From a virus: DNA of 22,463 nt. The position numbers and the translations under genes are program-made. Positions 7,669 through 22,463 of this stretch are shown here, one piece after another. The stretch spans positions 1 through 22,463 of the IMG/VR virus record IMGVR_UViG_3300050821_001888, one strand, 5' to 3'. The first letter of the stretch is position 1; each line of letters opens with the position of its first letter. The notes under the pieces are model-generated. The model was not told the DNA's origin. It saw nothing but the letters and a program-made list of their open reading frames with translations, and searched no databases.

Positions 7669-8894
7669 GCGACGCGCATGGCGTCTCCGCGCGCGGCGCA
7701 CCGGTCGGTGCCTCCGACACGCTGACCCTCACGGTGGGGAACAAGGTCCTCGATGGCTGGCAACGGGTTCAGGTGACGCGACCGCTCGCCGGGATCCCCG
7801 CCTCGTTCAACCTCGAAGTGACGGAGAAATATCCGAACAAGCCGGACGTCGACATCAAACCGGGCGATCCCTGCGAGGTGAAGATCGGCGGCGACCTCGT
7901 GATCACCGGTTACGTCGATCGCTACGCCGCCACGATCTCGCCAGCGCTTCACTCGATCCGCGTCTCCGGACGCTCCAAGTCGGAGGACCTGATCGACTGC
8001 TCGGCGGAGTTCGGCGACATCAACAAGCCGGGGTTCCAGACTGTGAACGGCACGACGCTCGCGCTCGTCGAGCAACTCGCCGCCCCCTATGGGATCAAGG
8101 TCAAGACATCGGCAGGCGATGGCGTGACGATCCCGCAATTCAACATCAACCTGGGCGAGACGCCGTGGGAGATCATCGACCGCGTCACCCGCTATTCACA
8201 AATGCTCGTCTATGACCTCCCCGACGGCTCGATCATGCTCGCCAAGGTGGGCACCGACAGCATGGCATCCGGCTTCTCGATCGGAGACAACGTCGAGCAA
8301 GGCGAAGTGACGCTGTCGATGGATCAGCGGTTCAGCGAGTACGAGGGGCATCTGACCTCGATCCTGACCTTCGGCACCGAAGCCGGAGTCAACACTCCGG
8401 ACGTCGGACAGGTGATCAAGGACGAGGGCGTGCCGCGGTATCGCAAGCGCTACGTGATCAGCGAGCAATTCGTGAACGGACGCGACATCGTCACCGACCG
8501 CGCGATCTGGGAAATGAACAAGCGGAAAGGGCAGTCGTTTCAGTTCAACGTGGTATGCGATTCCTGGCGCGACAGTGGCGGCAAGCTCTGGGAGCCGAAC
8601 AAGCTTTGTCCGATCTCCGCCGCCGTTCTGAAGCTCCGCAACGTGAATTACCTGATCGGCACCGTGACCTATCTCCGCGACGAAAGCGGACAGCACGCGA
8701 CGCTGTCCCTCTGGCCGCCTGAGGCGTTCGCCGTCGAACCGTCCGGACCGCTTGGCATCGTCACCGTCGAGGACGTCGAAAACAACAATCCGACGAAAAA
8801 GGAAACCGACACGACCACCCGGGGCGGGTCGGTCCGCAGCGACACGAACCTTCCGTCCGACAGCGGATCAGCACCACGGACCGCCATCGTATGA
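7665..8894 (+). CDS. baseplate hub protein, Mu gpP-like (gp44)
   Basis: I use the ATG at 7665 (ATGA overlap with the previous stop), which gives 409 residues; the open frame extends further upstream but only as shadow. The N-terminus contains [24 protein letters not shown], and the middle has [20 protein letters not shown] and [16 protein letters not shown], hallmarks of the gpP/gp44 hub (a gpD/gp27-type fold) on which the spike sits. Near residue 160-170 is [18 protein letters not shown]. The C-terminal 50 residues are polar and low-complexity ([16 protein letters not shown]). The next gene encodes the spike, as in Mu. Confidence 0.88.
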
Positions 8895-11749
8895 CCGCGA
8901 CCGATCGCCTTTATCGCCGCGTCCAGATGGCGGTCGCCTCGGTGACGATCTCCGCCACCAATGACAAGGGGCCGGTGCACCTCGTCCAAGGCAAGGTGCG
9001 CGGCACGCCGGAGACGATCGACAACCTGCAAACGCTGAACCTCTACGGGTTCGCCTCGCACGCTCCGGTTGGCTCCGACGCCCTGGTGGTCTTCGGCAAC
9101 GGTGACCGCTCGAACGGCGCGATCGTCGCGACCGCCAATCAGAAGGCCCGTCCGCGCGATCAAGCCGAAGGCGAGGTGTCGATCTATGACGACCTCGGCA
9201 GCGTCGTCCGCCTCGCCAGGGGCGGGAACATCGACGTCGCCGCCACCGGGACGCACACAACGAGCGTTCCGACCGTCGCCGTCGAGGCAACGCAGGGCGT
9301 GACGATCACCACGCCACAGCACCACGTCGAGGGCCGAAGCTCGGTCTCCGAAGCGCCCATCTCGCCGAACGACGTCGCGACGAAAGGTTACGTCGACGGG
9401 GTGGTGGGCGGCGGGGTGGTGGGACCGCCTGGACCAGAAGGCCCGGCTGGTCCGACCGGACCGACCGGGCCAGTCGGACCGCAGGGACCCGCCTCGACCG
9501 TTCCTGGACCGGCTGGGCCAGCCGGCGCCACGGGGCCACAAGGACCGCAGGGGCCAGCCTCGACAGTGCCCGGACCGCAAGGACCCGCAGGGCCTACGGG
9601 CAGCACAGGGCCACCAGGACCGCAGGGCGATCCTGGTCCGACCGGAGCGGACTCCACCGTTCCAGGTCCGCCAGGACCGCAGGGCAGTACCGGGCCACAA
9701 GGACCGATCGGCTTGACCGGGCCACAGGGGCCACAAGGCCCATCTGGAGCCGACAGCACGGTGCCAGGACCGCCGGGGCCACAGGGCGACACTGGCGCGC
9801 AAGGGCCACAAGGTGCAGCCGGGCCGACGGGTGCCACCGGACCACAAGGGCCAATTGGCTTGACCGGCGCCACCGGGCCGCAGGGCGTGCCTGGAGCAGA
9901 CAGCACCGTGCCAGGACCGCCAGGGCCAATCGTGGTCAGCGCCGACGCGAACAACTTCGCTCACCTTGGCAGCGACAGCTTCATATACGTTCCACCTGCA
10001 TTGCCGCTCACAGGTGGTGCACTCAGTGGAGGACTCAGCTTCGGTAGCGCGGTTGCTGCTAATGCAAACGACGTGACGCGGCACATCGCGTTGTATGCAA
10101 CGACATTCGGGATCGGCATTACTGGCTCGCGGATCAATTACAATGTGCCCGCCACAAACTCGCACTTTTTCCGCAGCGGCAACGCGGATCGCGTTCAGAT
10201 CACCGACGCCGGGATAAACATGCAGGCAGGGACGGCGATCACTCTTGCTGCTGATCCCACGGCCGCGCTGCACGCAGCAACGAAACAATACGCGGACGTG
10301 CATCCATTCGCCGATGCCGCGAACAACGCTTTCACTTACGCTCGCCATCAAAATGCGTGGGCGGCCGTGCCCTCGATTGTGCGCATCGGCACCAGTCAAT
10401 CATGGGACCCCGGAAGCATCGACGCGACGAATTCGGGGCTGATCGGAATCTGGACGGTCGTCAATCAGGGCGGCACTGGCGTCAACTGGCCAGCGGGAAA
10501 CGTCGATCAGACCGCGCTGATCCTGCACGGTTACAACTCAAATGCTGGCTGGCAGAATCAGCTTATGATGGGCGGCCGTGAGCGCGGCGGCGGCGCGGCG
10601 ATCTGGTATCGCAGCACAACGGATGGAGGATTTACGCCGTGGCGCCGCTTGCTCAGTGATGCCGGAGGCGCCCTCGTTGCCGGTGCAACCCTAACGCTCG
10701 ACGCTGATCCGACGACCGCACTGCAAGCCGCGACCAAGCAATACGTGGACAACACGGTCACCGCGTCCGGCGTGTCGTCGTTCAACACGCGGACCGGCGC
10801 CGTCACTTTGACGTCCGGCGACGTGACGACGGCACTTACGTTTACTCCGTATAACGCCACCAATCCGGCCGGTTACCAGACCGCCGCACAGGTCGCGACT
10901 TCGCTTGGTTCCTATCTTCCGCTTAGCGGTGGCACGATCACCAGCAACCTGACGGTCAATGGCGGACTGACCGCCAACACGATCTGGGGCAATCCAACGT
11001 TTACCGGCTCCATTTACGTGAACGGCACCGGCACCTTTTATGGCGACGGTAATTTGATGTGTTGGAGCAATAGCGGCGGTGTCGTTCGCATGAGGTTCTA
11101 TAGCGCTGGTGTTCGTGATTGGCGCTGTGGCGTTGATGGTAGTGGCAGCTTCGCTATCTCCGACGAAACTGCCGGCGCTTACCGGCTCTATGTCGATACC
11201 AGCGGCATCGTTCGCGCTCCGAATAGCGTCGTCGCGGGAAGCAACTTCCAGGCTTGTAACGGCGACGCGAACTGGGGCTATGGCGGCAGCGGGCGCATCC
11301 TGCAAATGGCCGCCAGTTGCTACTTCGATTTCGATAACACCGGGCAATTGACGTGGTACCGCTTCGGCAATGCTGTGACGATCCTGCGAAACGATAACTA
11401 CTTCGGCAACTACGCCGGGCCGGTATTCGGCAACGGTGCCTACGCCAACACGTCCGATCGCAGGCTGAAGGAGGAGATCGAGGACGCTCCGGAAGGGCTG
11501 GCGGCGGTCCGCAAGCTGAGTCCTCGCAAGTTCGTTCGCAAGGGTTCGCACTACAAACGCCGGGAAGTCGGCTTCATCGCCGACGAGGTGCGCGACGTCA
11601 TACCGGAAGCGGTTGTCGAGCTGACCGAGTTCCATCCGACGAAAGAGACGATGCTGGGCGTTCACGAGACCATGCTGATCCCGGTGCTGGTCAACGCAAT
11701 CAAGGAACTGGCAGCGCGCGTCGAAACCTTAGAAAAGGGGCGTCCCTGA
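8891..11749 (+). CDS. baseplate spike (Mu gp45-like) fused to collagen-like, fibre and S74 chaperone domains
   Basis: One uninterrupted frame of 952 residues. Residues 1 to about 130 are a clear Mu gp45-type spike: [20 protein letters not shown], then [18 protein letters not shown] and [18 protein letters not shown]. Instead of the HxH-type metal-binding tip, the protein goes through an ATKGYVD linker to a Gly-X-Y collagen-like region (about residues 178-347), then fibre text with two more ATKQY linkers ([13 protein letters not shown] and [15 protein letters not shown]), a pyocin-knob-like segment (about 470-593, with [10 protein letters not shown] and [10 protein letters not shown]), a beta-rich region with [16 protein letters not shown], and an S74 peptidase/intramolecular chaperone domain at the end (SDRRLK, Ser855 and Lys860). 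The chaperone is expected to trimerise the fibre and cut itself off before Ser855. Start ATG overlaps the gpP-like stop. Confidence 0.85.
9421..9932 (+). repeat. collagen-like Gly-X-Y coding repeat within the spike-fibre gene
   Basis: About 500 bases encode Gly-Pro-rich triplets ([17 protein letters not shown] and similar). The repeat is interrupted five times by the insert STVPGP, preceded by A or D (ASTVPGP twice, DSTVPGP three times), and by GPIGLTG segments twice. At the DNA level the words are GGACCGCAGGG-like and GGGCCACAAGG-like with varied third positions. Such triplets form trimeric stalks in phage fibres. The antisense strand shows long open frames here, which come from the repeat and not from a gene. 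Confidence 0.9.
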
Positions 11750-13829: not shown

Positions 13830-14510
13830 ATGCCACAGCTTCCCGTCTACTCCTCGACGGACTTCCTCTGGCAGTTCCAACGCCTGTTGCCTCGTGGGCG
13901 CGTCTGGCATCGCGGCTGGGGCACGCTACAGGCCCAAGCCCTGTTGACCCTCATGCCGACCTGGGCGCGGCTGCACCTCCGCTTGAACGACCTGATCAGT
14001 CAGATATTCCCATGCTCGACAACCGAACTCCTGACGGAGTGGGAGCAGACACTCGGCCTGCCCGATCCGTGCACCGGACCGCTGGATACAATCCAGCAGC
14101 GCCAGGGCGCGGTGTGCTCCAAGTTTTGCTCGCGCGGAGGACAAAGCAAACAATACTTCATCGACCTTGCTGCGGCTGCCGGCTTCGCGATCTCGATCAA
14201 GGAGTTCGCGCCATTCCGCGCCTCGATCAACCGTGCCGGCGACCCGGTGCGCGGTCAGGACTGGGCTTTCGCCTGGGAGATCACCACACAAGCGACGACC
14301 ATCGTCTATTTCCGCGCCAGTCTCTCGACCGCCGGGGAGCCGCTCGCGACCTGGGGGAACAAGACGCTGGAATGCCTGATCGAGCGATATGCGCCCGCGC
14401 ATACCGTGATCATCTGGCGCTACGTACAGGAAGGCGGCGGGTCGGTCTGGGATCGCGGAGAGTCGATCTATGACCAGGGCGCGTCCCTTTGGGATGGGCT
14501 GAATGGATGA
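13830..14510 (+). CDS. putative phage tail protein, YmfQ/DUF2313 family (Mu gp48-like)
   Basis: ATG at 13830 follows the gp47-like TGA without a gap. The 226-residue protein has family marks: LLPRGRVW near residue 20, DLISQIFPCSTTELLTEWEQTLGLPD (about residues 50-75), then QRQGAVCSKF. These proteins end the wedge series and attach fibres or stabilise the baseplate. The last 21 residues form three heptads, SVWDRGE / SIYDQGA / SLWDGLN, an extension not part of the core family. The gene overlaps the following fibre gene by 8 bases. Confidence 0.85.
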   Translation: MPQLPVYSSTDFLWQFQRLLPRGRVWHRGWGTLQAQALLTLMPTWARLHLRLNDLISQIFPCSTTELLTEWEQTLGLPDPCTGPLDTIQQRQGAVCSKFCSRGGQSKQYFIDLAAAAGFAISIKEFAPFRASINRAGDPVRGQDWAFAWEITTQATTIVYFRASLSTAGEPLATWGNKTLECLIERYAPAHTVIIWRYVQEGGGSVWDRGESIYDQGASLWDGLNG

Positions 14511-16026
14511 GCGTCTCGCGCATCGCGTCCTGACGGGAGGACGTCCCGCCCCGCGCCGCGCGATCCCGCGCGCGCCCGCGCCAGCGATTCCAGCGAGCGC
14601 GACAGTGCCCGCCCCGCCGCGCCTTCCTCGCGTGCTGGCCGCACCGCCGCAACAGCGCCGACCACCGCTCGCGCCACAGCCAACGCAGAAGCTTCGGCGC
14701 CGCCTGATCGCGACGACCCACCTCGCACCGGTCCCGTCCCTGCCCACGCCTTACGCTTCGCAGATCAACCCCGCCTATCCGATCTATGGCACGCCGACGA
14801 CGCAAAGCGTTCGCGACAATTTCGGTCACGCCCGAGACGAGATCAACGCATTGCAAATGGGCAAGCTCGATCTCGCTGGCGGCACTATGACCGGACGCTT
14901 AACCCTCTGGGGTCCACCGACACTGCCGTCCGACGCAGCGACGCGGCAATACGTCGACGATAGCACCGCTGGAGGCGACTTCCTGCCGATCACCGGCGGT
15001 GCGCTCCTCGGCCCCCTAAGCATGAGCAATAACAAGATCACGCAGCTAGCAGACGCCACCTCTGCGCAGGACGCTCTCAACACGCGCGTCGGTGACGCCC
15101 GCTATTACGCGGCGTCAAACCCGGCCGGGTATCAGACCGCCGCACAGGTCAGTGCGGTGGTCGGAAACTACCTTCCTTTGGCTGGTGGAACTTTGTCCGG
15201 CAGTCTCGGAGTGAACGGCAATCTAGATTGCCTCAATCAGATCACCGGAGGCAACGTCATCTCGACCGGCTCGATTATGAATTACTCGGGCGCCTTCTAT
15301 GTCGCGAACAATTACGCCTATTATCTCGCCCGCAACCCTAACAATGGAGAGTGGACCTTCGTTGACGCAAACAACGCCCTCGCTGCCGTTCGATCAGATG
15401 GATCATTTTGGGCTAGTAGCTACATCTCCACGCCCAGCTACATACAAGCAAACAACTACATTTATGGCGTCGGCGGCCTCTACGCCTGCAACACAGAGAT
15501 GTATTTTGGTTATGGCGGCAGTGGCAGAACCATGCAGATGGCGCCTAGCTGCTACTGGGACTTCCTCAGTGATGCTTCCCTGGTCTGGAACCGCTTCGGA
15601 GCGCAGATCATCGCCGCTCGCTCCGATGGCATCCTCGGGAATTATCAATGGTATGTCGCCGGGAACGGGGACTATTCCAACTGGTCGGACGCGCGACTGA
15701 AGGATCAGATCGAGGACGCCGAATACGGCCTCGCGCACGTCCGCCAACTCCGCGTGCGTCGCTTCGTCCGCAAGGCGACGCGAGGACTGCCGACCCCCCC
15801 GATCGAGATCGGCTTCGTCGCACAGGAAGTGATGGATGTCGTGCCGGAAGCCGTGACCGCCCTCACAGTCCCCGCTGGCGCGCTTCCGATCGACAGTGAC
15901 ACCGCCCTTGCCGTTCAGGGCGGAATGATCACCGCCATCCTGGTCAACGGGATGCAGGAACTAGCCGAGATCGCCGACACGATCACGGACCGAATGGCAA
16001 CCCTCGAAGCACGGATCGGGGTATGA
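14503..16026 (+). CDS. tail fibre with S74 intramolecular chaperone domain
   Basis: The 507-residue protein begins with about 70 residues rich in Arg, Pro and Ala, then fibre attachment text NPAYPIYGTPTTQSVRDNFG (about residues 87-106), a KLDLAGGTMTGRLTLWG segment, a DAATRQYVDD linker, LPITGGALLGPLSM, and [20 protein letters not shown], shared with the spike-fibre gene (18 identical bases in CAGACCGCCGCACAGGTC). It ends in an S74 domain with SDARLK (Ser395, Lys400) and VGFVAQEV-like text. The chaperone should release itself from the fibre before Ser395. It likely forms a receptor-binding fibre. Start: ATG at 14503; later in-frame starts are possible because the first 70 residues are low-complexity. 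Confidence 0.82.
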   Translation: MDERLAHRVLTGGRPAPRRAIPRAPAPAIPASATVPAPPRLPRVLAAPPQQRRPPLAPQPTQKLRRRLIATTHLAPVPSLPTPYASQINPAYPIYGTPTTQSVRDNFGHARDEINALQMGKLDLAGGTMTGRLTLWGPPTLPSDAATRQYVDDSTAGGDFLPITGGALLGPLSMSNNKITQLADATSAQDALNTRVGDARYYAASNPAGYQTAAQVSAVVGNYLPLAGGTLSGSLGVNGNLDCLNQITGGNVISTGSIMNYSGAFYVANNYAYYLARNPNNGEWTFVDANNALAAVRSDGSFWASSYISTPSYIQANNYIYGVGGLYACNTEMYFGYGGSGRTMQMAPSCYWDFLSDASLVWNRFGAQIIAARSDGILGNYQWYVAGNGDYSNWSDARLKDQIEDAEYGLAHVRQLRVRRFVRKATRGLPTPPIEIGFVAQEVMDVVPEAVTALTVPAGALPIDSDTALAVQGGMITAILVNGMQELAEIADTITDRMATLEARIGV

Positions 16027-16080: not shown

Positions 16081-17265
16081 ATGTATCGCATCGACAATTC
16101 ATCCGCCGCGACGACGCTCGCCGCCCCAACCACACCGGGCGCGATCCCGAATGGATTCTTTCAGGAAGGCAACCCGTCACTCGGGATCGACGCGACGATC
16201 CTCGAGGCCGAATGGCTCAACATGGTACAGGAGGAAGTATCCAACGTCATCACCGCGAACGGACTCGGCGCGGCCGGGGGAGCCGCTGACCTCAACAAAG
16301 ACGCGCGCAATCAACTCCTAACCGCGATCCGCCGCGAGGTCGCCAACGGGGTCTCTGGACAAATCCCCGACGTCTCGAACTTCGTGCATAAGACTGGTGA
16401 CGTGATGAGCGGGAACCTGACGGTTCCCGGCCTGATTGCCACGACCTTGCATGTCTCCGGCACCGGCATCCAGTACACCGATACGCACACCTATCGCTTC
16501 ACCTGGGATGGCAGCCTCATGGCATTTTATGTCGATGGGACATCCCAAGGACACGTAGCAGCAAGGGAATGGACGAGCGCGAACTTTGCCACGATCGCAT
16601 ACTGCCAGGGAACCTTCCTTCCGTTCAGCGGTGGAACTATCTCGGGCAATCTAAGCGTCTCGAACCATCTCGACGTCGGTGGCGGCGGCATCAACACTCC
16701 TGGCGGGGTGACAGCGACGACCGGCCTCTTTGCAGGCTCCGACCAACTGCTCTCCCTGTATACCTCTGCGGATGGCACGCGTTTCGCGCAGTTCATCAAC
16801 GGGTTTAGCCTTCAACTACTGACACCGGCCGTCTCCGGTTTTGATTGGACCTTTGACATTCAGCGCTATGGCGCGACGTGGACACAATGGCGCGGCAGCG
16901 ACATGACGTTTTTCAACGCGCTGGCAGCGGTAGGTGGGGCTGGTGCTTACTTCCAGGTTTCGGACGCCCGCACGAAAGAAGACATCGCGCCGGAGACACG
17001 GGGCCTTGACGTCGTTTGCGCGCTTGAACCCCGCAGCTTCCGCCGCATAGCGCGAGCCGATCGCGCGCTGTTCGACCGCGAGGTCGGCTTCATCGCGCAA
17101 GAGGTTCGCGACGTGCTGCCGGAAGCGGTCGCCGAACGGTCGCTCGCAGACACGGAGGACGACGCGCCGCTACTGGTGACGACCCTCGATCCGATCGTCG
17201 CCGCCCTGGTGAACGCAACCAAGGAGATCGCCGGGCGTCTCGTCGCGCTGGAGGCTAAGTCTTGA
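16081..17265 (+). CDS. tail fibre with N-terminal attachment region and S74 chaperone domain
   Basis: The 394-residue protein opens with MYRIDNSSAATTLAAPTTPG and FFQEGNP...ATILEAEWLNMVQEEVSNVI, an N-terminal attachment region common in phage fibres (residues 1-85). A beta-rich shaft with TGDVMSGNLTVPGL and LPFSGGTISGNLSVSNHLDVGGG follows. The end is a third S74 domain with SDARTK (Ser294, Lys299) and REVGFIAQEVRDVLPEAV. It differs from the preceding fibres in the shaft, so it may bind another receptor or be an alternative tip. The last bases overlap the convergent gene on the minus strand by 11 bases. Confidence 0.85.
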   Translation: MYRIDNSSAATTLAAPTTPGAIPNGFFQEGNPSLGIDATILEAEWLNMVQEEVSNVITANGLGAAGGAADLNKDARNQLLTAIRREVANGVSGQIPDVSNFVHKTGDVMSGNLTVPGLIATTLHVSGTGIQYTDTHTYRFTWDGSLMAFYVDGTSQGHVAAREWTSANFATIAYCQGTFLPFSGGTISGNLSVSNHLDVGGGGINTPGGVTATTGLFAGSDQLLSLYTSADGTRFAQFINGFSLQLLTPAVSGFDWTFDIQRYGATWTQWRGSDMTFFNALAAVGGAGAYFQVSDARTKEDIAPETRGLDVVCALEPRSFRRIARADRALFDREVGFIAQEVRDVLPEAVAERSLADTEDDAPLLVTTLDPIVAALVNATKEIAGRLVALEAKS

Positions 17266-18054: not shown

Positions 18055-18173
18055 TTCCCGATCCCGAACAGGTCTTGCCAGACGCCCCAATCCCACATGA
18101 TCAGCCCGAGCTTGATCACGAGAAACCCCATAACGAGCGCAAGCGCGAGCTTGATGAGGTTCAGGGCGATCAT
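18051..18173 (-). CDS. 40-residue single-pass membrane peptide
   Basis: A frame between integrase and the regulator, linked to both by ATGA overlaps (18170-18173 and 18051-18054). The peptide is MIALNLIKLALALVMGF... with an almost uninterrupted hydrophobic stretch over residues 4-28 and an aromatic end (MWDWGVWQDLFGIGK). It would insert in the inner membrane. The function is unknown; possibilities include superinfection exclusion or a toxin-like peptide. Its double coupling to flanking genes argues that it is a real gene. Confidence 0.6.
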   Translation of the reverse strand: MIALNLIKLALALVMGFLVIKLGLIMWDWGVWQDLFGIGK

Positions 18174-19495
18174 GCCGCCGACCTCCGGACGAGCTGCACC
18201 ACGTTCGACGCCGGAGCCTCGTCCGCCAGCCCGATCAGCGCGAGCGCAGTCGGCGCTCCGTCGAGGAGCATATCCGCCCACTGACACGCGATCCGGTGCC
18301 GCGCGCTCCGATACTCCGCGTGATTGTAGTGTCCCTCGACCGACGACTTCCGCGCGTCCCTCGTCTCGACGCTGTCGCGGAACGCGGAGTGCGCCAGCAT
18401 GACGTCGACAACCCGGAAGCTCGCGCCCTCGTCGATCTCGTTCATGATCGTAGAGAACGTGCCGCGCCAGCCGTGACAGACGAGAACGCGCCCGAGCTTC
18501 GCCTTTTCGAGCGCCTCCCGGATGCAGCGGGTCATCGTCGCCCGATCCATGCACGGCGAGTTCTGCCGCTGCGACGGGAAAACGAACTCGTTCTTGCGGA
18601 GCCGACGCGCCGCGCGGACGACGTCGATTGCCTGCGGGGCGAGCGCGATCACATGAGTGCGCTTCCCCTTCATCCGTTCGGCTGGGATCGTCCATGTCGC
18701 CGCGTCGAGATCGAACTCCGACCAGCGCGCGCCTAACGCCTCGCCGCCCCGAACTGCGGTGAGTGCGATCAGCCGATGCGCGAGCATGGTCCAGGGCGAA
18801 CTGACCTTCGCACGCGCCTCGACCGCCGCGAGGACCGCCCGCGCGTCCTCGATCGTCGCGACATGGGCGTGATTCTTTTCGTCCCCGCGCTTCCGCGCCG
18901 GAAGGTCCTCCGCGATCTTCGCGACGAGGTTCGTCGCGCACCAATCGCGCCGCGCCGCATACGCGAACATCCCGGACAGGTGTTGGCGGAGCGCGACCGC
19001 CGTCCGGGGGTATTTCCGGAACACGCCCTTGATCAGTCCCTCGACGTCGTCCGCCTCGATCGCGGAGATCGCCACGTCGCCCAGCTTCGGCAGGACATAC
19101 GTCTCGATCCGCCGTCCGATCGCCTCCCGCACCAGCGGCGTCCAGTTCGCCTTGTCGCCGCGTGCCTCCATCCACCGCGCCGCGACGAACCGGAGAGTCC
19201 GCTCCGCCGCCTCGACCGCGTGGACCCGCTCGGTCCGCTTCGCCTGGGCGGGATCCGGCGCGATCTTCATCGCCGCGCGCTTCGCCTTCGCTTCCTTGAT
19301 CGAGACATCGGGGAACGCGCCCAGGTTCAGCGTCGTCCGCTTCCCGTCGCGCTGCACCTTGCAGCGCCACATCTTCTGCCGGGGCGTCACCCACAGATCG
19401 AGTCCGTCGCCGAAGCGGAGGATATTCGCGGAGCCGTCGGGGTTGGGGACCGCGCGTTGCGCGTCGAGGAAACCGGGGGTATGGTTGATTGACAT
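18170..19495 (-). CDS. int: phage tyrosine integrase (P4-type site-specific recombinase)
   Basis: I place the start at the ATG at 19495, preceded by AAAGGAG, which gives 441 residues; the longer frame to 19603 lacks support. The N-terminal region (1-75) with LRFGDGLDLWVTPR and LGAFPDVSIKEAKAKR is like the arm-type DNA-binding domain of P4 integrases. Residues about 95-200 are the core-binding domain. The catalytic domain shows R249 (TAVRGGEALGARWSE), K276/K278 (MKGKRTHVIAL), H341-xx-R344 (HGWRGTFST), H369 (LAHS) and the nucleophile Y390 in GHYNHAEY, then WADML. It recombines attP with attB. The stop overlaps the following membrane peptide gene. A hairpin lies directly before the ribosome binding site. 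Confidence 0.92.
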   Translation of the reverse strand: MSINHTPGFLDAQRAVPNPDGSANILRFGDGLDLWVTPRQKMWRCKVQRDGKRTTLNLGAFPDVSIKEAKAKRAAMKIAPDPAQAKRTERVHAVEAAERTLRFVAARWMEARGDKANWTPLVREAIGRRIETYVLPKLGDVAISAIEADDVEGLIKGVFRKYPRTAVALRQHLSGMFAYAARRDWCATNLVAKIAEDLPARKRGDEKNHAHVATIEDARAVLAAVEARAKVSSPWTMLAHRLIALTAVRGGEALGARWSEFDLDAATWTIPAERMKGKRTHVIALAPQAIDVVRAARRLRKNEFVFPSQRQNSPCMDRATMTRCIREALEKAKLGRVLVCHGWRGTFSTIMNEIDEGASFRVVDVMLAHSAFRDSVETRDARKSSVEGHYNHAEYRSARHRIACQWADMLLDGAPTALALIGLADEAPASNVVQLVRRSAA

Positions 19496-19510
19496 AGAGA
19501 ACTCCTTTCC

Positions 19511-19542
19511 CGGCGCCCCGCCCCTGACAGAGCGAGGCGCCG
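19511..19542 (-). promoter_or_regulatory. hairpin in the integrase leader
   Basis: On the minus strand CGGCGCCTCGC and GCGGGGCGCCG pair over 11 positions with one G-U wobble, loop of 10 bases. It ends 3 to 9 bases before the integrase ribosome binding site. It could block or help ribosome access, or act as a processing site. On the plus strand it is followed by TTCTTTTG, but no plus-strand gene precedes it, so a plus-strand terminator has nothing to end. Role inferred. Confidence 0.5.
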
Positions 19543-19560
19543 TTCTTTTGAGTCGATCAG

Positions 19561-19770
19561 CTAAATCTCGGACACCGTGATCGTGTCTCCCGGATATAGC
19601 CACGTCGTCGCCAGGATCAGCGACGCCGCTGCCTGCGCCGTTTCGAGCGCGAGCGTCTCGTCGGTGTCGTCACGATGGACCGAGACGATCCGCTCGTCGA
19701 GGGGACCCGCTCCGTTCGCCAGGACGACCCGGACCCGCCGACGCTTCGAGCGATTCGGATGATTGATCAT
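19561..19770 (-). CDS. hypothetical small protein
   Basis: The ATG at 19770 overlaps the stop of the upstream gene (ATGA). The 69-residue product is basic at the start (NRSKRRRVRVVLANG) and ends LILATTWLYPGDTITVSEI, with a short hydrophobic stretch around residues 45-58. I do not recognise the family. It precedes integrase by 65 bases and lies in the same orientation, so it is probably in the integrase transcript. The longer open frame to 19950 is shadow of the previous gene. Confidence 0.6.
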   Translation of the reverse strand: MINHPNRSKRRRVRVVLANGAGPLDERIVSVHRDDTDETLALETAQAAASLILATTWLYPGDTITVSEI

Positions 19771-19985
19771 GTGCAGACCTTCACGAACACCGTTCCGACG
19801 AAGTCGGACGGAGCGAGCGAGCGGACGTGCGCCTTGATCCACACTTTCGCCTGACCGTAGTTCGAGCGTGGCGCCCAGATCGGACCCGCGAGGCCCGGAA
19901 CCTCGAACGCCCAAGAGCCGAAGCCCTTGGGTGCGCGACCGTGAGTCCACTGGTAATCACGGGTATCGAAATTGAAGTCGATCAT
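19767..19985 (-). CDS. hypothetical small protein
   Basis: A 72-residue product (MIDFNFDTRDYQWTHGRAPK...) with a Shine-Dalgarno GGGAGGG just upstream, inside the end of the previous gene. It is rich in aromatic residues and contains WAFEVPG and WIKAHVR; no domain recognised. Its stop overlaps the next start as ATGA. The three small genes 19561-20300 form a chain towards integrase. Function unknown. Confidence 0.6.
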   Translation of the reverse strand: MIDFNFDTRDYQWTHGRAPKGFGSWAFEVPGLAGPIWAPRSNYGQAKVWIKAHVRSLAPSDFVGTVFVKVCT

Positions 19986-19988
19986 CGT

Positions 19989-20300
19989 TCAGCCCTCCCG
20001 CTTCGCGAGATCGTCCGCGACGTCCTTCGACGCCGCGAGGTCCGCCGCGACTTCCGCGTGAACCGCCGCGTCGTCCGGAGTGACCCGCGACTTCGCGTTC
20101 AGCGCCATGACCGCCGTGTCGATCGAGGACTGACGAGCGCCGCAAGTGATGATCTTCAGATCGGAAGCGCGAACGCCGTGATCGCGATAATCCTGACGCT
20201 CGAAGTCGATCTCGGAGCGATCATAGGAACCGCCGACGATCTCCCAACGAGACTCCGCGTCGTAACGCGAGAGAAGGACGAAGTATTTACGTGAAGCCAT
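19989..20300 (-). CDS. hypothetical small protein, first gene of the integrase-directed chain
   Basis: The ATG at 20300 has AGGAG upstream with 9-base spacing. The 103-residue product begins MASRKYFVLLSRYDAESRW and has an acidic-basic mixed middle (DYRDHGVRASDLKI) and an Ala/Asp-rich C-terminus (VHAEVAADLAASKDVADDL). I recognise no named domain. It is 3 bases from the next start, whose ribosome binding site lies in its last codons. A promoter must be upstream, in 20301-20610. Confidence 0.65.
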   Translation of the reverse strand: MASRKYFVLLSRYDAESRWEIVGGSYDRSEIDFERQDYRDHGVRASDLKIITCGARQSSIDTAVMALNAKSRVTPDDAAVHAEVAADLAASKDVADDLAKREG

Positions 20301-20348
20301 AGTCTGAACTCCTGCCCCAGAACCCGAGGCGCGGTGTCCCGGAGAAGC

Positions 20349-20578
20349 CCGGAACTTGAACCCACTTTCCGCCGAATTTGAACCCGTTTGTTCGTCCAGC
20401 GGCGAAGCTGCTATACACCCGGACCCGCAGAAAACCTAGGAAATCCGCCGCATGAGCGCGCATGACGAAGCACCGCCCGTTTTGGTGAACAACAGTGATC
20501 TGACACCTTAGCCGTTGATATTCCTCGATATTTTGTCATGGCCGCCGGAACTAGAACCCATCTCGAACCCACTAGTTC
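20349..20578. repeat. imperfect direct and inverted repeats (GAACCC family)
   Basis: Copies lie at 20349-20364, 20372-20386, 20545-20560 and 20565-20571. The last two GAACCCA words (20554-20560 and 20565-20571) are 11 bases apart, one helical turn, and are enclosed by an inverted repeat GAACTAG (20548-20554) / CTAGTTC (20572-20578). The arrangement fits binding sites for a regulator or for integrase arms. No protein is shown to bind. Confidence 0.6.
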
Positions 20579-20585
20579 GCAAAAC

Positions 20586-20606
20586 GCATGGCTCGGCCTG
20601 CCATGC
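20586..20606 (-). terminator. terminator-like hairpin after the 20611 gene
   Basis: On the minus strand GCATGGC, loop AGGCCGA, GCCATGC form a perfect 7-bp stem, followed by GTTTTGCG. It begins 4 bases after the stop codon of the 20611-20829 gene, the place for an intrinsic terminator of the upstream small-gene operon. The T tract is short, so termination may be partial. Confidence 0.5.
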
Positions 20607-20610
20607 CGCG

Positions 20611-20829
20611 TCATTCCTCGTCCTCCCCGTCCTCTGCGATGTAGAAGTTCCGCTCGTTCTCCGGGCACTCCTCGCGCATCAACGCGAGCGCGCGCCGCAC
20701 GCTGACCGACTCGGTCCCGTAGGACTCGGTGACGTGCCCGCACAAGCTGCACGTCGCCTGTACACTCTCGACCTCGCGCCCGTCGTCGTTCTCGATCTCG
20801 ACGAACTCGATCGCGCAATGGACCTTCAT
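20611..20829 (-). CDS. small protein with possible zinc-binding cysteines
   Basis: The ATG at 20829 follows GGGAGG with 7-base spacing and overlaps the endonuclease stop (ATGA). The 72-residue product has Cys27-SL-Cys30 (ATCSLCGHV) plus Cys5 and Cys55, and an acidic C-terminus (EDGEDEE). The CxxC pattern suggests a small zinc-binding protein of the sort common in phage early regions. Family and function not recognised. Confidence 0.65.
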   Translation of the reverse strand: MKVHCAIEFVEIENDDGREVESVQATCSLCGHVTESYGTESVSVRRALALMREECPENERNFYIAEDGEDEE

Positions 20830-21377
20830 AGCAAGCCTCCCTGCCGGTGATCGCGGATCGTCCGATGCTTCAGAGCGTTCCCCGCTCTAGCGCGAGCGAT
20901 CTTCGCTCGCCTCTCCGGGATCGTAAGCGCCGATTCCAGACGTGAACGCGCTATCTCTAGCGCCTTTCGGGAGTTGCCGATGTTACGCGCGCGATACTCC
21001 GGATCAGTCCACAGTTCCCGCAATGTAGTGCTATGCCTTGCCCGAGCCACAGGCGACACGACTCTGCCGGGCATTCCGACTCCAGCGATTAGATTGAAGC
21101 CCTTCGGTGCGAGCGTGTCGTATTGATTGATGAGGTGTTTTTCGGCCCAATCAGTGTCGGCCTTACTCTTACAACAGAGGATCGTCGCAACAGTGAACAC
21201 CCCCTCGCCGTGTTCGCGGATCGCTTCCTGCAACGGATAAGTCATACCCTTGGCGGCGTGTGAGACATGGGCGCTCCACCTAGTCGCGACTCGCTTAGAA
21301 GTCTGCCCGATATATTGTTGCCCCGTCGTCGTGCAGGTAATGAGATAGACGATCCAGACCTTCGCCGGAGCGTTCAT
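20826..21377 (-). CDS. GIY-YIG endonuclease, free-standing
   Basis: The 183-residue protein has a GIY-YIG domain at residues 8-96: VYLI (Y11), QYIGQT (Y22), R29/R33 with W34 and H37, E79 in DWAEKHLINQY as the metal ligand, and GFN (N95). The C-terminal half contains HSTTLRELWTDPEYRAR and a repeat-like basic helix region similar to the DNA-binding NUMOD-type motifs of homing endonucleases. It cuts DNA at one or a few sites and can spread its own gene. It is not inside an intron; it lies in a chain of small genes with 4-base overlaps on both sides. Ribosome binding site GAGGTG lies in the previous gene. Confidence 0.88.
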   Translation of the reverse strand: MNAPAKVWIVYLITCTTTGQQYIGQTSKRVATRWSAHVSHAAKGMTYPLQEAIREHGEGVFTVATILCCKSKADTDWAEKHLINQYDTLAPKGFNLIAGVGMPGRVVSPVARARHSTTLRELWTDPEYRARNIGNSRKALEIARSRLESALTIPERRAKIARARAGNALKHRTIRDHRQGGLL

Positions 21378-21580
21378 GCGTTCGGCACCTCGATGCCGCC
21401 CGCGTCCGCGATGATCGCGCGAGCGAGTTCCGCGTCGACGCCGCTCGCGATCACGCGCAGCGGCAGCCGCGTGTGGTTCTCGTCGATCTCCTCGACGTCA
21501 TAGCGCGGCGCGAACGGTTCTTGTCGTCCGAGCATCCAGCGCTCGATCGCCGCATTCCGGACGAGGCGATAGCGGGTCAC
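21374..21580 (-). CDS. hypothetical small protein
   Basis: I favour the GTG at 21580, which overlaps the stop of the membrane peptide gene as GTGA, over the ATG at 21628, which has no ribosome binding site and lies within that gene. The 68-residue product contains ERWMLGRQEPFAPRYDVEEID and a C-terminal helix (DAELARAIIADAGG). The family is not recognised. The stop overlaps the endonuclease start (ATGA). Confidence 0.55.
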   Translation of the reverse strand: MTRYRLVRNAAIERWMLGRQEPFAPRYDVEEIDENHTRLPLRVIASGVDAELARAIIADAGGIEVPNA

Positions 21581-21669
21581 CACTTCAACCCGAACGCCGC
21601 GATCGTCAGCATCGCGATCGCCAGCCATGCGAGCATCAATAGGACGAGCGTTCCGACGAACCGCTTCAT
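21577..21669 (-). CDS. 30-residue membrane peptide
   Basis: The ATG at 21669 overlaps the stop of the upstream gene (ATGA) and its stop TGA overlaps the next GTG (GTGA). The peptide is MKRFVGTLVLLMLAWLAIAM followed by LTIAAFGLKW, a positive N-terminus and one hydrophobic helix ending in KW. It would insert in the cytoplasmic membrane. It is too short to be found by ordinary gene callers; its tight double coupling supports it. Function unknown. Confidence 0.5.
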   Translation of the reverse strand: MKRFVGTLVLLMLAWLAIAMLTIAAFGLKW

Positions 21670-21869
21670 GTCCGCTTGCCCCGCTTCACCTCGCGCTTGA
21701 TCGCCAGCGGCGCCACCACGAGCCAGCCACGCGCCACGCAACAGCGCGCGCACCACGCGCCCGGCTTCGTGCCGCGATCGACCAGGAACCCGCCTGGGGC
21801 TTGCGCAGGGGCTTGTCCTGGCGCGAACGCGACAGCCTTCCGACCGCAGCGGCAGCGCGGGAGCGACAC
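21666..21869 (-). CDS. small zinc-ribbon-like protein, start of the small-gene chain
   Basis: From the GTG at 21869 the 67-residue product has CxCG at residues 6-9 (RCRCGRK) and CxxCC at residues 40-44 (WCARCC), spaced like the two halves of a zinc ribbon, then a basic end (IKREVKRGKRT). The frame is open further upstream into the repeat region, but there the text is low-complexity and not believable. The GTG shares a base with a TAG of another frame. The ribosome binding site is modest (GGGAGC or CGGA). It overlaps the membrane peptide gene by ATGA. Confidence 0.5.
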   Translation of the reverse strand: MSLPRCRCGRKAVAFAPGQAPAQAPGGFLVDRGTKPGAWCARCCVARGWLVVAPLAIKREVKRGKRT

Positions 21870-21884
21870 TATTCCGCCGCTCCC

Positions 21885-22463
21885 GCCATGACCGCCAGGA
21901 CTAGCCACGCCGGACCGAACCAAGGCCCGCCGCGACCGGCCTGGACAGACCGGACCCAGCCGTGACCGCCTTGCCCGGACCCGCCGAGCCATGCCGCACC
22001 GAGGTGCGCCTGCACCTTGACAAGCCCAGCCGTGACCGCCTTGACGTGCCTTGACGTGCCAAGCCCGGCCTTGACTGGCCTTGCGACGCGATGACCGCCT
22101 TGCCCGGCCAGTCCAAAACCGGCCAGACCTCGACAAGCCACAAACGCGCCTTGACTGGCCATGACCGCCAAGCCCTGCCCTGTCCGGTGCAACCCGGCCA
22201 AGCCATAGCAAGCGACACCACGACCGCCAGGACCAGCCGCGACAAGACATGCCCGGCCGCACCTCGCCATGACTGGACCTGCCAGGACCGGCAGGCCAAG
22301 ACTTGCCGGGACTCGCCTTGCCGGGACCGGCCAGACCGCGACCGCCATACCAGGACGAACCGTGACGCGCCTGATCCGGCCTGGACCGGCCAGGACCCGC
22401 CTGGACATGACCGCCGCGACATGCCTTGCCAGGACGAGCCGGGCCTGGACAGAATCGGCCCCG
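21885..22463. repeat. degenerate 5-bp/10-bp periodic repeat of NNGCC/NNGAC, no gene
   Basis: The plus strand is largely built of pentamers ending GCC or GAC (for example TTGAC GTGCC TTGAC GTGCC at 22041-22060). I count about 24 exact GCCNNGAC octamers between 21885 and 22450, many spaced by 10, 15, 20 or 30 bases. Long open frames exist in two or three frames of the minus strand because the pentamers contain no stops; they are low-complexity and I do not call them genes. The repeat reaches the window edge. Possible roles: helically phased protein-binding array, replication or packaging site, or a slippage-born low-complexity filler. Confidence 0.7.

What the first reader, a model, noticed from the sequence alone, without database searches (positions are those of the whole stretch)
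21885..22463. Pentanucleotide-phased NNGCC/NNGAC array of unknown purpose
At least 570 bases consist mainly of pentamers ending GCC or GAC; GCCNNGAC occurs about 24 times where a few at most would be expected, with spacing often 10, 15 or 20. This is neither a usual tandem repeat nor coding sequence. Spacing by one helical turn invites the idea of a protein-binding array (partition, replication, packaging, or a decoy for a nuclease).
Basis: partly seen in the sequence, partly recalled or inferred. Interest (0 to 1): 0.75.

Follow-up and report, generated by a model that had tools for sequence, protein, structure and literature searches.

The report
Phage RNA-guide array (VIPR type)
The strange five-letter pattern at the end of this phage fragment is very probably an array of RNA guides of the recently reported VIPR system, a small relative of CRISPR that phages carry to switch off genes of rival phages, and one of its guides appears to spell part of a rival's DNA polymerase.

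Summary
The pentamer array is real (GMCnnGMC 65 vs 5.4 expected; lag-5 z 8.4, lag-10 z 9.7). Read on the minus strand it is G(G/T)C-NN, cut into segments by GGCGGTC, a 4-nt instead of 5-nt step. The same kind of array lies next to two genes of unknown PHROG families (4652, 15946) in 75/80 and 69/80 related phage loci, and in all five annotated phages checked. The first protein matches the solved SUSP1 Vipr protein (PDB 36pp, E 1e-7) and its model resembles Csm subunits. So this is a vrRNA array of VIPR, reported in 2026 (PMC13142463). The contig ends inside the array, on the side where vipr would lie; 33 of 40 further loci fetched with the window's delimiter carry vipr.

Decoded by the published one-base-skip rule, guide 22226-22288 spells the family A DNA polymerase motif SQIEAR(I/M)LAWL (0 of 1000 permutations score as high); an 18-base gapped probe of it matches 49 viral contigs, best overall match 22/24. 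A general DNA-level target search found no excess.

The parts
21885..22463 (-). vrRNA-type array, transcript strand G(G/T)C-NN pentanucleotides; continues past the right end of the contig (5' side of the transcript)
21890..21896 (-). delimiter GGCGGTC (8th, most 3')
   Evidence: 4-nt step in the 5-nt register
21964..21970 (-). delimiter GGCGGTC (7th)
22034..22040 (-). delimiter GGCGGTC (6th)
22093..22099 (-). delimiter GGCGGTC (5th)
22163..22169 (-). delimiter GGCGGTC (4th)
22222..22228 (-). delimiter GGCGGTC (3rd)
22340..22346 (-). delimiter GGCGGTC (2nd)
22409..22415 (-). delimiter GGCGGTC (1st)
22226..22288 (-). guide segment, 12 NN: CT AG CA AT GA GC CG AT TT GC TG CT; with a one-base skip it decodes to L-(R/S)-(H/Q)-(I/M)-(D/E)-A-R-(I/M)-(F/L)-A-(C/W)-L = family A DNA polymerase motif A
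   Evidence: Its 5' edge is a delimiter with one changed base (GCCGGTC), inferred by eye
22344..22411 (-). guide segment, 13 NN, decodes to (I/M)(H/Q)GLR(H/Q)R(H/Q)ATSL(I/M), which looks like a tyrosine-recombinase HxLRHxxA motif; not confirmed as a target
21857..21886 (-). 12-bp hairpin directly 3' of the last repeats (tail or end of the transcript, inferred)
   Evidence: -36.6 kcal/mol for 21840-21896, z -4.0 against shuffles
21666..21870 (-). small cysteine-containing ORF downstream of the array, same strand; possible gene, no family
18170..19603 (-). tyrosine integrase: the fragment belongs to a temperate phage
   Evidence: PF00589 E 1.7e-16

Best explanation
The array is the 3' part of a VIPR guide-RNA (vrRNA) locus of a temperate contractile-tail phage. 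It would be transcribed from right to left (minus strand), starting beyond the contig end where vipr and its accessory gene are expected. Each segment between GGCGGTC delimiters is one guide of about 10-14 repeats. The G(G/T)C triplets are the scaffold gripped by successive Vipr (Cas7-like RAMP) subunits, and the NN pairs read the target DNA as NNxNNxNN with one base skipped. Binding represses genes of competing phages; one guide is written against the DNA polymerase motif A codons. Shown here: the array, its segmentation, its neighbours in relatives, the homology of the neighbour to SUSP1 Vipr, and the decode match. Inferred: that the unseen right flank of this phage holds vipr/vap, transcription, RNP assembly, the skip rule for this subtype, and repression.
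For: Array statistics. Similar arrays in many viral contigs. Neighbour genes are phrog_4652 and phrog_15946; each was found in 33 phage records with the same make-up (27 Mycobacterium, 5 Gordonia, 1 cyanophage). All five annotated phages inspected have GGCNN arrays next to them. 75/80 and 69/80 related loci have an array within 2.5 kb, while far regions score low, and 136/148 array segments are on the vipr/vap strand. Segment lengths are quantised at 5n+4 with a mode at 49. The window's GGCGGTC delimiter recurs in L032 (38 copies), which has both genes upstream of its array in the window's orientation; 33/40 further loci fetched with that delimiter have vipr. The profile of 53 neighbour proteins hits PDB 36pp 'SUSP1 Vipr protein', E 1.1e-7; the model (pLDDT 88) matches Csm subunits of type III-A effectors, E 2e-5. 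Published system. NN composition fits codon positions 1+2 on both strands better than any other phase. Polymerase decode: 0/1000 permutations reach its score; the 18-base gapped probe hits 49 contigs and the 40 listed matches read in frame through the motif. A guide in L036 spells the Vipr G-loop VGVGEWRPE.
Against: No vipr gene is in the window; only the anatomy of the array and its relatives link it to the system. A DNA-level target search of 535 segments in 3.4 Mb found no excess over shuffles for any skip length, though that target set is small. The polymerase guide does not match any found contig at all 24 bases (best 22/24), and at DNA level it is not above shuffles in the unselected loci (19/24). 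The window has many GTC triplets (43 against 57 GGC) whereas relatives have about 4-6% GTC cores and the published consensus is GGY. The integrase-like decode is not significant.
Confidence: 0.93

Rival explanations
1. A double-stranded DNA array bound by a phage protein on one helical face (partition, replication, packaging).
For: Spacing near half a helical turn and the lag-10 peak.
Against: Strand is fixed relative to vipr/vap in 136/148 segments; regular 4-nt steps break helical phasing; NN positions carry codon-like content; the adjacent protein in relatives is Vipr, an RNA-guided RAMP.
Confidence: 0.03
2. A degenerating pentanucleotide microsatellite with no function.
For: Pure GC-rich pentamer repeats do occur in bacterial genomes.
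Against: Slippage gives identical neighbours; here three bases are kept and two are free, over hundreds of repeats in unrelated phages, beside the same genes.
Confidence: 0.01
3. A coding region with a repeated peptide.
For: All three minus-strand frames are open, and annotators sometimes call ORFs in such arrays (Pipp gp43).
Against: The pentamer makes stops rare in every frame; the register changes at each delimiter; stops occur in other arrays.
Confidence: 0.01
4. A decoy RNA that soaks up Vipr or Cas7-like proteins of host or rival, rather than a guide array.
For: The contig shows no vipr gene of its own.
Against: One segment decodes to a conserved polymerase motif, and 33/40 loci with the same delimiter have their own vipr.
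Confidence: 0.02

Closest known systems
VIPR systems (Vipr + vap + vrRNA; PMC13142463, preprint 2026)
   Same: Tandem pentanucleotides with a fixed GGY-like core and free NN; minimal two-gene phage locus in relatives; neighbour protein homologous to SUSP1 Vipr; NN content consistent with codon-phased targets.
   Different: Core is G(G/T)C with many GTC in the window; guides are packed head to tail and separated by a single extra base (GGCGGTC) rather than each followed by a long tail. Whether this equals the preprint's 'staggered arrays' could not be checked; its supplement was not readable here.
Class 1 CRISPR-Cas (type III-A Csm, Cas7/Csm3)
   Same: RAMP fold of the neighbour protein in relatives (Foldseek E 2e-5).
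   Different: No CRISPR repeats or cas operon; five-base step with free pairs instead of contiguous spacers.
TRAP-binding RNA (triplets with 2-3 base spacers; from general knowledge)
   Same: Triplets separated by two bases and bound by a multimeric protein.
   Different: Different triplet, far more repeats, RAMP neighbour. Not tested further.

Membership tests
VIPR | Tandem repeats of a conserved GGY alternating with variable NN | tested here: met
   variant core G(G/T)C
VIPR | 9-16 repeats per guide | tested here: met
   Segments of 10-14 NN in the window; 7-16 in 589 segments
VIPR | vipr gene beside the array | tested here: inconclusive
   None in the window, contig ends in the array; present in 33/40 loci with the same delimiter
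VIPR | Neighbour protein is a Vipr (RAMP) homologue | tested here: met
   In relatives only: PDB 36pp SUSP1 Vipr E 1.1e-7, Csm-like fold
VIPR | vap accessory gene | tested here: inconclusive
   phrog_15946 next to vipr in relatives; no PDB match; identity with a named vap not testable; absent from the window fragment
VIPR | NN pairs specify DNA targets with a one-base skip | tested here: inconclusive
   Polymerase guide supports it; general DNA-level search shows no excess
VIPR | Transcribed vrRNA that co-purifies with Vipr and represses targets | not testable with these tools
   Needs RNA and protein experiments; only a 3' hairpin is seen
CRISPR array | Near-identical direct repeats with contiguous unique spacers | tested here: not met
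   Tandem Repeats Finder finds no such array; the register is 5 nt throughout
Rfam families | Match to a curated RNA family | tested here: not met
   No match in 19600-22463

The most novel reading that the evidence does not exclude
A VIPR subtype in which guides are punctuated by a single extra base (GGCGGTC), use a mixed GGC/GTC scaffold, and are aimed at codons of catalytic motifs (DNA polymerase motif A here, a rival's Vipr G-loop in L036) that prey cannot easily change, with the skipped base on the wobble position.
Probability: 0.35. Interest if true: 0.75.

Novelty: new member of a known kind. Interest (0 to 1): 0.62.

Why it matters
VIPR is the proposed ancestor of CRISPR and was reported only in 2026. 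This array was found blind, from raw sequence. It links the system to two PHROG families without assigned function and to well-studied laboratory phages of Mycobacterium and Gordonia, and gives a concrete target prediction (DNA polymerase motif A) for a guide subtype with one-base punctuation.

Tried and rejected
blastn of the array against phages and plasmids: no match, expected because NN varies. Relatives of the GIY-YIG protein: none. Genome contigs pattern scan: mostly chance hits and pure short pentamer repeats. Target search of 535 segments at DNA level, skip 0-3: no excess. Integrase-like guide: the viral seed scans gave only chance extensions or out-of-frame matches, there was no match with up to 3 mismatches in 385 genomes of the class of a Methylobacterium genome, and permutations score as high, so it stays a lead only. 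Tail sheath in nine bacterial genomes to place the host: none. Accessory protein fold: no convincing PDB match. Alternation of GGC and GTC as a general rule: not seen in relatives.

Full report
Observation. The array is real and reaches the last base of the record. On the minus strand it reads G(G/T)C-NN. Eight copies of GGCGGTC interrupt the 5-nt register with a 4-nt step, and four of the seven intervals between neighbouring copies fit 5n+4: 69, 59, 59 and 74. The 118-nt interval contains a further delimiter with one changed base, judged by eye.

Not unique. In unrelated phages these arrays often sit beside the same two genes, phrog_4652 and phrog_15946, both of unknown function and without Pfam or NCBIfam match. 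A profile search gave 407 relatives of the first and 248 of the second. Of the best 80 each, 75 and 69 have a period-5 array within 2.5 kb. The same score in the rest of the loci stays at about 0.1, with two at 0.15. Several of the misses are contigs cut next to the gene. 136 of 148 array segments carry GGCNN on the strand of the genes. In the phage collection each gene is found in 33 records: 27 Mycobacterium, 5 Gordonia and one cyanophage. Five were opened and all five have the array.

Identity. The preprint PMC13142463 describes VIPR: a RAMP protein, an accessory gene, and vrRNAs of alternating GGY/NN motifs that read DNA with a one-base skip. A profile of 53 phrog_4652-type proteins finds PDB 36pp 'SUSP1 Vipr protein' at E 1.1e-7 over positions 14-189. 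The predicted structure of one of them (pLDDT 88) resembles the Csm subunits of type III-A effectors. The array in the window is therefore filed as a vrRNA array. The window itself lacks vipr; it ends inside the array on the side where vipr lies in L032, which shares the GGCGGTC delimiter, the strand arrangement and a GTC-rich core. Of 40 further loci fetched with that delimiter, 33 have vipr.

Segmentation. In relatives the delimiter is GCAGGC or GCGGTC. With GCAGGC, spacings are mostly 39, 44, 49, 54, 59 and 64 with a mode at 49. Several arrays end in strong hairpins; the window's is at 21857-21886, z -4.0 for 21840-21896. Inner cores in relatives are about 70% GGC, 11% GGT and 4-6% GTC; the window's high GTC share, tending to alternate with GGC, is unusual.

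Targets. The NN composition fits codon positions 1+2, both strands pooled, better than other phases (in high-GC phages no better than a uniform distribution). A DNA-level search for targets among the loci in hand shows no excess at any skip length. At protein level two of 437 segments stand at least 14 points above their shuffles, against 0 of 1311 shuffles: a segment of L036 that spells the Vipr G-loop VGVGEWRPE, and the window segment 22226-22288 that spells the DNA polymerase motif A. For the latter, 0 of 1000 permutations reach its score, although the best reached 52 against 53, so after correction for eight segments this is about p 0.01. An 18-base gapped probe made from it matches 49 viral contigs. 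Two 16-base probes of the same form gave 47 and 30, so about 2-3 would be expected. The 40 matches printed read in frame through the polymerase motif, with the skipped base at the third codon position, best 22/24. The probe was chosen after the protein match, so the two lines are not independent. In the unselected loci the DNA-level match is not above shuffles.

Verdict. A VIPR guide array, cut by the contig end. Membership rests on the array's own anatomy and on relatives, since vipr is not in the fragment. It is a new member of a very recently described kind, with a scaffold and punctuation that may mark a subtype.

Noticed in passing
L036:6582-6645: Guide segment whose NN pairs decode to VGVGEWRPE, the G-loop of Vipr itself: a guide apparently aimed at rival VIPR systems.
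   Followed up: partly
L248, L249, L250, L251 (phages Quico, Pipp, Ecliptus, Brocalys): Well-studied Mycobacterium and Gordonia phages carry vipr-like and accessory genes annotated as hypothetical, with GGCNN arrays; in Pipp the array is annotated as gene 43.
   Followed up: partly
L342:3720-3993 and L338:3090-4183: Arrays beside the accessory gene with other cores (GAC-NN and apparently CGC-NN), suggesting that the scaffold triplet itself varies between lineages.
   Followed up: no
search of phrog_4652 in control genomes: The vipr family model also rings in Caulobacter vibrioides and Thermotoga maritima.
   Followed up: no
window 8891-11749, 14503-16026, 16081-17265: Three tail-fibre-like genes; the first has collagen-like Gly-X-Y repeats, and all end in similar segments that look like the self-cleaving chaperone domain; by eye only.
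   Followed up: no
window 20826-21377: GIY-YIG endonuclease gene between integrase and array; no relatives found in IMG/VR with the patterns used.
   Followed up: partly
window 22344-22411: Guide segment that reads like the tyrosine-recombinase motif HGLRHRHATSL under the one-base-skip rule; unsupported by target searches.
   Followed up: yes
L170, L176, L182, L208, L236: Pure GC-rich pentamer or decamer repeats in bacterial genomes (several Actinobacteria), unlike the degenerate phage arrays.
   Followed up: no
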